Part shown: in pieces, positions 55,104 to 58,235 of the stretch
Position numbering within the stretch: position 1 is the stretch's first letter
How the letters are laid out: every line of letters begins with the position of its first letter
From: Gemmatimonadales bacterium
GTDB taxonomy: Bacteria > Gemmatimonadota > Gemmatimonadetes > Gemmatimonadales > GWC2-71-9
Direction: 5' to 3'
DNA length: 64,000 nt
Assembly: GCA_019637315.1 (NCBI GenBank)
Contig: JAHBVU010000009.1
Location: forward strand, 62,001 to 126,000
Translations under genes and position numbers: made by a program
Notes under the pieces: model-generated
Database searches by the model: none
Told to the model about the DNA's origin: nothing
The model's input: the letters and a program-made list of their open reading frames with translations, nothing else

Positions 55104-56405
55104 TCAGTTGCTGGTCAGGGCGGCGATCAGTGATTTCCGGTCCGGCGCCCCGGCCAGCAGTTGGCGCGCCACCGCCATGGCCGGATCAGCCTGCGTGCTG
55201 ACTTCTCCCGTGCTGGTAATCTCGCGGTCGGGGACCACGCCGCCGCCGCCCAGCACGACCCTCCCTCCCCCGGTTCGGAATTCGGGTCGAACCTCAACGG
55301 TGTCAACCGAGGCATCCGACTGCTGAAGCGGCGAGGTGCGCTGGATTACTCGCCCGCTGGGCGTGACCCACAGCTCGGTGGTGAGGCGCAGGGACAGGCC
55401 GCCACCAAGCGGAAAGAAGGACGCTCGACCGGCCCGACCAAAAGTCGTCTCGCCGACGATTACGGCGCGGTCATGATCCTGCAGCGCGCCAGCCACGACC
55501 TCGGCGGCGCCGGCGGTGCCACGATCGACCAGGACCACGACCGGCGTGTCGACGTGCCTGGTCTCGGCGTCACCGGCAGCCGCCGTCGAATCATCGGCCG
55601 GCCTCCGCCTGACGATGACGACGGACTGACCACGGTCGAGCAGCCTGGTGGCAAAGGTCACGGCATCGCCGAGGGTGCCCTCGACGGCACCGCGAAGATC
55701 GATCACCAGGCCGGGACGCCCGGGCCCGCCGGCGCGCAGGGCTTCCTCGAGGGCAGCAATCGCAGCCCGATCGATTCGATAGGCACGCAGATGGGTGGTG
55801 CCATCCTCCAGCGTTTGCAGGGTGGCGTCCGGAAATGCCGGCACACTTCCTCGCGTCAGCTCGAGCCGCAGGGCGCTCGTTGCACCCTCGCGACCGAGCC
55901 GCAGGGACACTGTCGTACCAGGCCTGCCGTCGATCAGCGCGGCGACCTCATCGGCAGACTGTGACCGGATGTTCGTCTCGCCGACCCGAAGGATCGCGTC
56001 GCCCGACCGGATCCCGGCCGCGGCCGCAGGCGATCCCGGCACTACTGAGACCGCAGCGACGAACCCATCAGCGAGATCGAGGTAGAGGCCCTGCACCGGT
56101 GCGGGACCGATCCGTCCCCTCGCCGCTGCCGTATCACGATCGGACACCAGTCCTGCATAGGGATCGCCCAGCTCACCCAGCACGCCGGACGCGGCCAGGC
56201 GATAGACCCCCGATTCGTCGAGCGAGTCGACCGCGTACGCCCGAACCGTCTGCAGCACCGAGTTGAACAAGCGGGTGCCCCCGACCGAGGCCACCGGAGC
56301 GGGCGCGGGCGCGACCGGGGTCAGGCCCTTGCGGAGCAACCAGCCGCCCAGGAAGAACGCGCCGACAGCAACCAGCCCGACCAGGAATGTTTTGAACCGC
56401 GTCAC
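55104..56405 (-). CDS. S41 (CtpA-like) peptidase homologue with both catalytic-dyad residues replaced
   Basis: 433 residues from GTG 56405, overlapping the tmk stop (GTGA) with GGAG upstream. A membrane anchor (FLVGLVAVGAFFLGGWLL), a PDZ domain (about 95-170, VPGSPAAAAGIRSGDAILRV) and the S41 core are present. Active CtpA/Tsp proteins read G-(T/S)-A-S-A-S-E here; this one reads GTAGAAEVVAGALQD. Exactly 25 residues on, as between Ser430 and Lys455 of Tsp, the Lys of TFGKG is Arg (TFGRA). It is therefore probably a non-catalytic peptide-binding protein. Confidence 0.88.
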   Translation of the reverse strand: MTRFKTFLVGLVAVGAFFLGGWLLRKGLTPVAPAPAPVASVGGTRLFNSVLQTVRAYAVDSLDESGVYRLAASGVLGELGDPYAGLVSDRDTAAARGRIGPAPVQGLYLDLADGFVAAVSVVPGSPAAAAGIRSGDAILRVGETNIRSQSADEVAALIDGRPGTTVSLRLGREGATSALRLELTRGSVPAFPDATLQTLEDGTTHLRAYRIDRAAIAALEEALRAGGPGRPGLVIDLRGAVEGTLGDAVTFATRLLDRGQSVVIVRRRPADDSTAAAGDAETRHVDTPVVVLVDRGTAGAAEVVAGALQDHDRAVIVGETTFGRAGRASFFPLGGGLSLRLTTELWVTPSGRVIQRTSPLQQSDASVDTVEVRPEFRTGGGRVVLGGGGVVPDREITSTGEVSTQADPAMAVARQLLAGAPDRKSLIAALTSN

Positions 56406-57034
56406 ACCGTCGCTCCGACAAGGTCCGGACAGGCCCGCACCACGGCCTGCCATGCTGCGTCACCCAGCTGGTCCGGTCGCTGAGTAGCATCCAGGTGAAC
56501 GATGCCCGGACCGGTTGCCGCACGGTACGCCTGGGCCACCCGCTCGTGAAAGGCCTCACCCTCACGGTCGAGTCGATCCTGCGCTTTTCCGCTGCCCAGC
56601 TGTCGCTCCCGGCCGACCGCAGGCGGCACGTCGAGCACCAGGGTCAGCCGCGGCGTCAGGCCTCCGGTCGCCGCCCGGTTGACCCAGGCGACCTGTGGCT
56701 CCGGCAAGCCTCGACCAGCAACCTGGTAGGCATGGGTCGATAGATCATAGCGATCCGAGAGCACCATGCGACCGGATGTCAGGGCCGGACGGATGACCTT
56801 GGCCACCAGGTCCGCACGCGCGGCGGCGATGTAGAGCAGCTCCGCTTCCGGCGTCCACTCCCGCTCGTCGTGCAACAGCTCGGCCCGCAAGGCTTCGGCC
56901 GCCGTGGTGCCTCCGGGCTCACGCACCAGAACCGGCTCGATCCCCGCCGCGCGAAGTCGCTCGGCCAGATAGCGCGCCAGGGTGGTTTTCCCGGCACCTT
57001 CCGGACCTTCCAGCACGACGAACACGCCGGTCAT
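56402..57034 (-). CDS. tmk: thymidylate kinase
   Basis: 210 residues. P-loop FVVLEGPEGAGKTT, the REPGGT motif (LVREPGGTTAAEA), the DRYDLSTHAYQ region and a LID segment. It phosphorylates dTMP to dTDP. It starts within the ylbF stop (TGATG) and overlaps the S41 gene, so it is tightly coupled in the rpmE-prfA-prmC-ylbF-tmk operon. Confidence 0.95.
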   Translation of the reverse strand: MTGVFVVLEGPEGAGKTTLARYLAERLRAAGIEPVLVREPGGTTAAEALRAELLHDEREWTPEAELLYIAAARADLVAKVIRPALTSGRMVLSDRYDLSTHAYQVAGRGLPEPQVAWVNRAATGGLTPRLTLVLDVPPAVGRERQLGSGKAQDRLDREGEAFHERVAQAYRAATGPGIVHLDATQRPDQLGDAAWQAVVRACPDLVGATV

Positions 57035-57387
57035 CAGCCCAGCGTAATGATGTTGCTGGTGGCGCCGCGCTCGATCCCGGCGGACATCTGCTGATTGACT
57101 CGGTTCATCAGCTTGTCGAAGTTGGCGCGGGCCACGACATAGGCCTGCCCGACCACCGACAGCTCGAGCGCCTTGACCGCTTCCTCGTACGACTGGGTCA
57201 TTGCCTCGTCGGGCATCTGCCCCTGGGAAACGAGCCCGTCGATCTGCCGAGCCAGCGTCTGAATCTGGTCGAGCTTGGCCACCGTCTCGGAATCGTCCTT
57301 GAGGGCCTGCTCCGACCGACGAAGGGCCTGATACTCGGTCGACTGGCCGATCAGGCGGCCCAGGTCGAGCGCACGTTCCTCAATCAT
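57034..57387 (-). CDS. ylbF: YlbF/YmcA-family protein
   Basis: About 117 residues from ATG 57387, overlapping the prmC stop as ATGA and preceded by GGAGG; an ATG 12 bases upstream is inside prmC. The all-helical YlbF pattern is visible in ALDLGRLIGQSTEYQALRRS and ALKDDSETVAKLDQIQTLAR. In Bacillus the YlbF/YmcA/YaaT complex controls RNase Y and competence. No partner gene is in the window. Confidence 0.83.
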   Translation of the reverse strand: MIEERALDLGRLIGQSTEYQALRRSEQALKDDSETVAKLDQIQTLARQIDGLVSQGQMPDEAMTQSYEEAVKALELSVVGQAYVVARANFDKLMNRVNQQMSAGIERGATSNIITLG

Positions 57388-58235
57388 GACTTCCTCCATC
57401 GCGCCATCAGATACCGAGGGCGCCCAAAAAGGTCCGCTTCGATCCGAATCTCGGACCAGCCAGCCTCCGCTACTTGCGCAGCCGATTCCGACGGGCGGTC
57501 AGCGGCAATTTCGATCATCAGCCAGCCCCCCGGTACCACGACCCGCCCCGCATCCTGCGCAAGCAACCGGGTCGCATCCAGCCCGTTCGGGCCGCTACTC
57601 AAGGCCAGAACCGGCTCGTAATCCCGCACCGAACCCGCCACTGCAAGATACTCGGCCTGAGAGAGATACGGCGGGTTCGATACCACCACGTCGACCCGCC
57701 GCGAACCGATCGCCCCGACAAGGTCACCCCGCAGCAGTTGGATCCCGATTCCGGTTCGGCGACGGTTCACCGCCGCAAGCGCCAGCGCATCCGCCGACCG
57801 ATCGATCCCGGCCACACGGTCGAAGCGTCCCTCGCTGGCCAGCGCCAGCGCGATGCAGCCGGTGCCGGTGCCGACGTCCACCACGGTCCCGCCGCTGCCC
57901 ACGGCAAGGACCCGGTCGACCAGGCCTTCCGTCTCGGGGCGAGGAATCAGCGCCCGCCGGTCACTCCGCAGCACCAGGTTGCGAAAGCCTGCCAAACCGG
58001 TGACATATGCCAGCGGCTCGCCGGCCGCCCGCCGACGCACCAGCCGGTCGAGGCGCGCAGCCAGGTCAGGATCGAGATCACGACCGCGATCGGACAACAC
58101 CCCCGCCACCGGCTGCTCGAGCACGTCACTGAACAGACGCAACGCCTCGCGACGCGGCTCGGGCATACCGACGCCCGCCAGCACCGCAGTCGCCGCTGCG
58201 AGCGCTCGCTCGACGGTTGGCGGCGCCGTCACCAT
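57384..58235 (-). CDS. prmC: peptide chain release factor N5-glutamine methyltransferase
   Basis: 283 residues. N-terminal helical domain, then a SAM-binding domain with VDVGTGTGCIALALA and the catalytic VVSNPPYLS. PrmC methylates the GGQ glutamine of release factors, and its substrate RF1 is encoded immediately upstream, three bases away, in the usual prfA-prmC arrangement. Length is typical. Confidence 0.94.
   Translation of the reverse strand: MVTAPPTVERALAAATAVLAGVGMPEPRREALRLFSDVLEQPVAGVLSDRGRDLDPDLAARLDRLVRRRAAGEPLAYVTGLAGFRNLVLRSDRRALIPRPETEGLVDRVLAVGSGGTVVDVGTGTGCIALALASEGRFDRVAGIDRSADALALAAVNRRRTGIGIQLLRGDLVGAIGSRRVDVVVSNPPYLSQAEYLAVAGSVRDYEPVLALSSGPNGLDATRLLAQDAGRVVVPGGWLMIEIAADRPSESAAQVAEAGWSEIRIEADLFGRPRYLMARWRKS

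What the first reader, a model, noticed from the sequence alone, without database searches (positions are those of the whole stretch)
55104..56405. S41/CtpA-like protein with both catalytic residues replaced
In Tsp/CtpA proteases the nucleophile is the Ser of (S/T)-A-S-A-S-E and the general base is the Lys of TFGKG, 25 residues apart (Ser430/Lys455 in E. coli Tsp). Here the aligned residues read GTAGAAE and TFGRA, again 25 apart: Ser to Gly and Lys to Arg. PDZ, fold motifs and the GALQD segment remain, and the gene sits in a highly compact operon with tmk, so it looks maintained, not decayed. A pseudo-protease that binds C-terminal peptides in the periplasm would be a new variation.
Basis: partly seen in the sequence, partly recalled or inferred. 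Interest (0 to 1): 0.65.

Follow-up and report, generated by a model that had tools for sequence, protein, structure and literature searches.

The report
Conserved inactive CtpA-type protease
In a small group of uncultured Gemmatimonadota, an envelope protease of the CtpA/Prc family has lost its catalytic Ser and Lys but is still kept under strong selection, and an apparently independent version of the same Gly-Arg replacement is spread across a whole class of Acidobacteriota, so it is a maintained pseudoprotease rather than a dying gene.

Summary
The gene at 56405-55104 (-) encodes a CtpA-type S41 protein whose Ser-Lys-Gln triad reads Gly299-Arg324-Ala328, in ungapped register with P. aeruginosa CtpA Ser302-Lys327-Gln331. 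It is not a local accident. All six genomes held of the genus have Gly-Arg, another genus has it too, and a third has Asp-Arg, always at the same ylbF-tmk-S41 locus. Every other Gemmatimonadota CTP read (125 sequences) keeps Ser-Lys. Of 31 columns at least 99% conserved in those, only the catalytic Ser and Lys are lost in all seven full-length pseudo-forms. The closest pair has dN/dS of about 0.06, like its neighbours. All eight genomes keep a second, Ser-Lys-Gln CTP. AlphaFold gives a confident CtpA fold that fits resting CTPs better than active ones; its active orthologue does the reverse. A DNA-pattern scan plus an orthologue survey also found an apparently independent Gly-Arg S41 family across Vicinamibacteria (Acidobacteriota), often next to an M23/EnvC-like gene, and Asp-Arg forms in Planctomycetota. 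Best reading: a membrane-anchored pseudoprotease with a binding or regulatory role in envelope proteolysis. Loss of catalysis is strongly supported; the partner and ligand are inferred. New variant of a known kind.

The parts
55104..56405 (-). S41/CtpA-type pseudoprotease gene, 433 aa, GTG start overlapping the tmk stop
   Evidence: (PF03572 100.9 bits, PDZ_6 43.5 bits)
56325..56402 (-). N-terminal hydrophobic helix, residues 2-27 (membrane anchor or signal anchor)
   Evidence: one helix in the AF2 model; hydrophobic sequence FLVGLVAVGAFFLGGWLL
56121..56279 (-). N-terminal dimerisation-type helices (NDR), residues 43-95
   Evidence: aligned with P. aeruginosa CtpA; relatively well kept inside the genus, mean identity 0.65 against 0.56 overall
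55836..56096 (-). PDZ domain, residues 104-190; GLG loop changed to VQG
   Evidence: Pfam, VIA-align Z 13.7 to the Vibrio CTP PDZ 6bxg, alignment A2
55680..55688 (-). degraded Asn-Pro-Gly part of DLRGNPGG: A240, V241, E242
   Evidence: N240 98% and G242 98% in active forms, N lost in 7/7 and G in 4/7 pseudo-forms
55509..55511 (-). Gly299 at the nucleophile Ser position (GGC codon)
55434..55436 (-). Arg324 at the general-base Lys position (CGG codon)
55422..55424 (-). Ala328 at the third triad position (Gln)
   Evidence: A/L/L/Y/Q/Q in the six species of the genus
55107..55286 (-). C-terminal strand and final helices (residues 374-433); a helical bundle of about 96 residues present in active orthologues is missing between them
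   Evidence: alignment A2; AF2 model of the active orthologue L013 has helices 413-509
56402..57034 (-). tmk (dTMP kinase), directly upstream
   Evidence: TIGR00041 138 bits, over its cut-off
57034..57399 (-). YlbF/Com_YlbF family gene, upstream of tmk
   Evidence: PF06133 57.7 bits
54235..55101 (-). DUF2520 protein, directly downstream
   Evidence: PF10728 109.5 bits
53545..54228 (+). LolA-type gene, convergent, conserved neighbour
   Evidence: PF03548 64.4 bits; conserved position

Best explanation
This is a membrane-anchored, periplasm-facing pseudoprotease derived in place from the CTP gene of the ylbF-tmk-S41-DUF2520 cluster. In a lineage that also has a second, complete CTP (called CtpA2 here), the tmk-linked copy lost its Ser-Lys(-Gln) machinery and, in two of the three genera, a C-terminal helical bundle, but kept the CtpA fold, the PDZ domain and the dimerisation helices. 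It most likely works without catalysis: it binds proteins or peptides, probably as a substrate-holding adaptor or a regulatory/decoy subunit for envelope proteolysis. Shown here: loss of the catalytic residues, its age, purifying selection, predicted fold, and presence of an active-type paralogue. Inferred: loss of all proteolytic activity, ligand binding, and the partner (CtpA2 is the first candidate).
For: Catalytic positions: G299/R324/A328 against S302/K327/Q331. Clade-wide: Gly-Arg in 6/6 genus genomes and G007, Asp-Arg in G033, at the same locus, with the upstream ylbF-tmk cluster seen wherever the contig reaches; only these 8 of 395 phylum genomes match the Gly/Asp-Arg pattern. One clade on the protein tree (SH-aLRT 92; 87). 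Selection: G001/G004 dN 0.065, dS 1.04, against DUF2520 0.056/0.74 and LolA 0.073/0.93. Selective loss: of 31 columns at least 99% conserved in 125 active forms, 25 are kept in all 7 full-length pseudo-forms and only S299 and K324 are lost in all 7. No new Ser/Lys is fixed in the pseudo-forms. Arg324 is invariant while Gln328 drifts. AF2 model pLDDT 88.5, pTM 0.84, H. pylori CtpA Z 34.5; resting CtpB Z 30.5 against active CtpB Z 22.4, reversed for the active orthologue (31.1 active, 23.6 resting). Below the curated CTP cut-off (165 against 218.6 bits), where tested active forms score 274-314, apart from L015. All 8 genomes keep a second Ser-Lys-Gln CTP.
Against: No partner or ligand is shown. 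The PDZ loop (GLG to VQG) and cap region (27% mean identity in the genus) have changed, so classical C-terminal peptide capture may also be lost. The gene evolves about twice as fast relative to tmk as active copies, so part of it is under relaxed constraint. The dN/dS rests on one pair, 185 codons, with dS near saturation. AF2 conformers depend on the alignment and are weak evidence.
Confidence: 0.55

Rival explanations
1. A free-standing peptide or protein binding scaffold or chaperone: it acts as a homo-oligomer and has nothing to do with the active paralogue.
For: Dimerisation helices and terminal helices are kept; no protease partner lies in the operon; the tmk/ylbF/DUF2520/LolA neighbours are the same as beside active copies.
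Against: No specific evidence for self-assembly; the active paralogue is present in every genome, which fits a functional link just as well.
Confidence: 0.25
2. Slow decay: after a second CTP took over, this copy became redundant and is simply not yet lost.
For: Faster evolution than active copies (branches about 0.3-1.2 against 0.1-0.3), loss of a helical bundle, redundancy with CtpA2.
Against: dN/dS of about 0.06 in the closest pair, no stops in 8 species, 25 of 31 near-invariant columns kept, Arg324 invariant.
Confidence: 0.08
3. Still an enzyme: a different residue acts as nucleophile or base, or the Gly-Arg site does other chemistry.
For: The region around the dead site is the best conserved part together with the strand after it (0.75 mean identity); Thr297 and Glu302 remain.
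Against: No new conserved Ser, Thr, Cys, Lys or His in the pseudo-forms; the residue after the nucleophile, an oxyanion NH donor in Prc, is Pro in two of the species.
Confidence: 0.05
4. Gene replacement: the pseudo-form came in by horizontal transfer from an Acidobacteriota-like Gly-Arg family rather than by loss at the locus.
For: The same Gly-Arg replacement exists in Vicinamibacteria; the AU test does not reject one joint clade (p 0.16).
Against: All Gemmatimonadota CTPs including the pseudo-forms form one group (SH-aLRT 100); same tmk locus; nearest relative is the tmk-linked Ser-Lys-Gln protein L015.
Confidence: 0.05

Closest known systems
CtpA of Pseudomonas aeruginosa and Helicobacter pylori (S41 carboxyl-terminal processing proteases)
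   Same: Fold, PDZ, N-terminal dimerisation helices and similar length; Z 32.5 and 34.5, 24-32% identity
   Different: Ser-Lys-Gln replaced by Gly-Arg-Ala; Asn of the DLRxNPGG motif lost; PDZ GLG loop changed
tmk-linked active CTP of the same phylum (L013, L051, L015)
   Same: Same gene order ylbF-tmk-S41-DUF2520, 36-37% identity
   Different: Active forms keep Ser-Lys-Gln and an extra C-terminal helical bundle; L013 and L051 pass the TIGR00225 cut-off, L015 does not (196 bits)
Vicinamibacteria (Acidobacteriota) Gly-Arg S41 family found here (L160, L176-L206)
   Same: Same Ser-to-Gly and Lys-to-Arg replacement, PDZ plus S41 fold, degraded DLRxNPGG, below the same curated cut-off
   Different: Class-wide, different locus (M23/EnvC-like gene, S41, thrS-infC), mostly keeps the Gln, separate branch
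RBP3/IRBP (vertebrate retinoid-binding S41 homologue)
   Same: S41-type fold used in a retinoid-binding rather than proteolytic protein (Z 16-19 for IRBP modules; PMC11750400)
   Different: Eukaryotic, repeated modules, binds retinoids; much weaker similarity
YqgP rhomboid acting as pseudoprotease adaptor of FtsH (PMC7231995)
   Same: Bacterial precedent for a protease fold acting as substrate adaptor of another protease without catalysis
   Different: Unrelated fold; YqgP itself still has protease activity

Membership tests
S41 carboxyl-terminal processing protease (CtpA/Prc) | PDZ plus peptidase S41 domain, CTP fold | tested here: met
   PF03572 100.9 bits, PDZ_6 43.5 bits; CtpA Z 34.5, rmsd 3.1, 337 aligned
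S41 carboxyl-terminal processing protease (CtpA/Prc) | catalytic Ser | tested here: not met
   Gly299; 125/125 active-type sequences have Ser, 0/8 in the clade
S41 carboxyl-terminal processing protease (CtpA/Prc) | catalytic Lys | tested here: not met
   Arg324
S41 carboxyl-terminal processing protease (CtpA/Prc) | third triad residue Gln | tested here: not met
   Ala328 in the window; Gln kept in some relatives
S41 carboxyl-terminal processing protease (CtpA/Prc) | oxyanion elements (Gly of NPGG, residue after Ser) | tested here: inconclusive
   Second Gly (G243) and A300 kept in the window protein; Asn and first Gly lost; Pro after the nucleophile position in two relatives
S41 carboxyl-terminal processing protease (CtpA/Prc) | curated TIGR00225 score | tested here: not met
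   165.2 bits against a cut-off of 218.6; L013 314, L051 296, L001 274
S41 carboxyl-terminal processing protease (CtpA/Prc) | proteolytic activity | not testable with these tools
   needs purified protein
non-catalytic S41 homologue (pseudoprotease) | S41 fold kept, catalytic residues lost, gene maintained by selection | tested here: met
pseudoprotease adaptor (as YqgP for FtsH) | physical interaction with an active protease and substrate delivery | not testable with these tools
   active-type paralogue present in all 8 genomes; interaction not tested

The most novel reading that the evidence does not exclude
Gly-Arg (or Asp-Arg) is not just a dead site but a repeatedly evolved binding site: Arg in place of the general base, with the nucleophile side chain removed, could hold the carboxylate of a protein C-terminus in the former tunnel. 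A class of 'C-terminus readers' derived from CTPs would then exist in at least Gemmatimonadota, Acidobacteriota and Planctomycetota.
Probability: 0.13. Interest if true: 0.75.

Novelty: new variant of a known kind. Interest (0 to 1): 0.52.

Why it matters
Six full-text searches of the held open-access library found no paper describing a natural bacterial CTP pseudoprotease; that library is incomplete. CTPs control peptidoglycan hydrolases and signalling proteases through adaptors such as LbcA and NlpI. A conserved dead copy kept beside a live one offers a route to ask whether CTPs can act as adaptors or decoys, and the larger Acidobacteriota family shows that this may be a recurrent solution. 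Automatic annotation will call most of these proteins 'S41 peptidase', which is probably wrong.

Tried and rejected
1) Local loss or assembly error: rejected, 8 separate genomes. 2) Relocated Ser/Lys: no new conserved candidates. 3) Decay: dN/dS and the pattern of kept columns argue against it. 4) A common origin with the Acidobacteriota family: disfavoured by locus and tree, but the AU test (p 0.16) does not exclude it. 5) A new operon partner that arrived with the loss: none; neighbours are the same as beside active copies. 6) The second CTP (CtpA2) lies elsewhere, beside HEAT-like repeat genes and not beside an EnvC-like gene (names by eye). 7) Pattern hits in Pseudomonas, Methylotenera, Gordonia, Rhodococcus, Nitrincola and an archaeon are chance matches, not S41. 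8) In one search two rows (L068, L076) are marked PSEUDO only because of a default label in my script; they are duplicates of active L028 and L034. 9) Literature searches for S41 pseudoproteases gave no bacterial CTP case.

Full report
What was checked. The gene lies at 56405-55104 on the minus strand (GTG start, 433 aa). The start GTG overlaps the stop of tmk (GTGA) and the next gene begins 2 bases after its stop. Pfam gives Peptidase_S41 (100.9 bits) and PDZ (43.5 bits). Without any gap in this stretch, Gly299, Arg324 and Ala328 align with Ser302, Lys327 and Gln331 of P. aeruginosa CtpA, the triad reported in PMC8764530.

How widespread. In the window's own genome there are six S41 domains by Pfam. 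In all six genomes held of the genus the tmk-linked S41 protein reads Gly-Arg. So does G007 in another genus, while G033 in a third reads Asp-Arg. G004 is a partial gene at a contig end, so its tmk side cannot be seen. I fetched and aligned the S41 proteins of the family: apart from these eight, every Gemmatimonadota CTP sequence read (125) keeps Ser and Lys, with no intermediates. A degenerate DNA pattern for Gly/Asp...Arg found only the same eight genomes among 395 of the phylum. The gene order ylbF-tmk-S41-DUF2520, with lolA convergent, is shared by active and inactive forms, so by position this is the same gene.

Phylogeny. The eight proteins form one clade (SH-aLRT 92, seven full-length rows). 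A tmk+YlbF tree places these genomes in a fully supported group with L015 (Ser-Lys-Gln) and genus g56 (Ser-Lys-Gln). The loss is therefore derived and was probably a single event, with the Asp-Arg form on the outermost, long branch. L015 keeps the dyad but already falls under the TIGR00225 cut-off (196 against 218.6 bits) and has Met at the G242 position, which makes it look like a sister on the same path.

Maintained, not decayed. The only close pair (G001/G004, 185 codons, including the dead site) has dN 0.065 and dS 1.04, about the ratio of DUF2520 (0.056/0.74) and LolA (0.073/0.93) of the same pair (Nei-Gojobori, dS near saturation). Of 31 columns at least 99% conserved in 125 active forms, 25 are unchanged in all seven full-length pseudo-forms and only S299 and K324 are lost in all seven; at 97% the list of frequent losses adds N240, G242, I303 and G229. 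Arg324 is invariant while Gln328 has become A, L, L or Y in four of six species. The reverse signal is that the gene evolves faster than active copies, and mean identity in the cap region is 0.27 inside the genus.

Structure. AlphaFold2 with 86 sequences gives pLDDT 88.5 and pTM 0.84. The best solved matches are CtpA of H. pylori (Z 34.5) and P. aeruginosa (Z 32.5); resting CtpB (4c2e) fits with Z 30.5 and rmsd 2.9, active CtpB (4c2c) with Z 22.4 and rmsd 5.9. For the active orthologue L013 (pLDDT 89.6) this is reversed: active 31.1, resting 23.6. That is only a prediction, but the contrast is clear. L013 also has a helical bundle (413-509) that the two Gly-Arg genera lack; the helices that end the protein are kept.

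Genomic background. A second CTP clade (CtpA2, L001 in the window's genome) stands out by score from all tmk-linked copies and occurs in 24 of 102 family genomes (a 25th is partial), including all eight with the pseudo-form; the copies read are Ser-Lys-Gln. Inside the genus it is 75-83% identical between species (one closer pair at 96%), against 49-60% for the pseudo-form (the same closer pair at 89%). The simplest history is that CtpA2 carried on the proteolytic work and the tmk-linked copy changed its role.

Recurrence. The one scan of 84,980 species genomes with the same pattern found true S41 matches in Acidobacteriota and Planctomycetota as well. A follow-up in the class of G416 (Vicinamibacteria by the record title) found orthologues at E <= 1e-60 in 94 of 119 genomes. 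Of the 30 best, read with three earlier loci (two of them duplicates), almost all are Gly-Arg-Gln, with two Gly-Leu, one Gly-Ser, one Gly-Arg-Met and one Ser-Arg; G450 has Gln-Arg-Gln. In the 13 wider loci that could be read the gene often lies between an M23 coiled-coil (EnvC-like) gene and thrS-infC-rplT-pheS. Gemmatimonadota CTPs including the pseudo-forms fall apart from this family (SH-aLRT 100), although an AU test does not reject a joint clade (p 0.16). The Planctomycetota cases were found by a pattern that demands Arg, so they do not by themselves show a preference for Arg; conservation of Arg inside the Gemmatimonadota and Vicinamibacteria families is much less open to that objection.

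Mechanism. Shown: catalytic residues lost, old, shared by a clade, under purifying selection, fold predicted intact, active-type paralogue present. Inferred: no proteolysis; a membrane anchor by the N-terminal helix; a binding role through PDZ, tunnel or dimerisation helices; a link to CtpA2. Bacterial precedent for a protease fold acting as an adaptor without catalysis is YqgP with FtsH (PMC7231995). In Prc the oxyanion donors are Gly398 and Ala453 (PMC6686036); the second of these positions is Pro in two species here, which argues against residual activity there.

Limits. Most genomes are metagenome-assembled; species counts are those of the held collection; no complex prediction was available; the literature library holds open-access papers only. 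That S41 contains other non-peptidase members in curated databases is my own knowledge and was not tested.

Noticed in passing
L160:2066-3232 (-), L176-L206: Class-wide S41 pseudoprotease family (Gly-Arg, one Gln-Arg) in Vicinamibacteria, in many loci beside an M23/EnvC-like gene and upstream of thrS-infC-rplT-pheS.
   Followed up: partly
L155, L167, L168: Planctomycetota S41 proteins with Asp-Arg at the Ser-Lys positions (GTADAAE...TFGRA).
   Followed up: no
L123, L128, L138, L140, L146: A branch of Gemmatimonadota S41 proteins not beside tmk keeps Ser-Lys but has Tyr in place of the triad Gln (TFGKGVAY).
   Followed up: no
L072 (G018), L067 (G098), L135 (G008): Some family genomes have a second S41 gene after DUF2520 at the same locus, a local duplication with Ser-Lys-Gln intact.
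   Followed up: no
L015 (G006): tmk-linked S41 with intact Ser-Lys-Gln but fast evolution, score under the curated CTP cut-off and Met at the G242 position; a possible intermediate.
   Followed up: partly
L004, L005, L006: Three further S41 domains in very long open frames (1100-1149 aa) in the window's genome.
   Followed up: no
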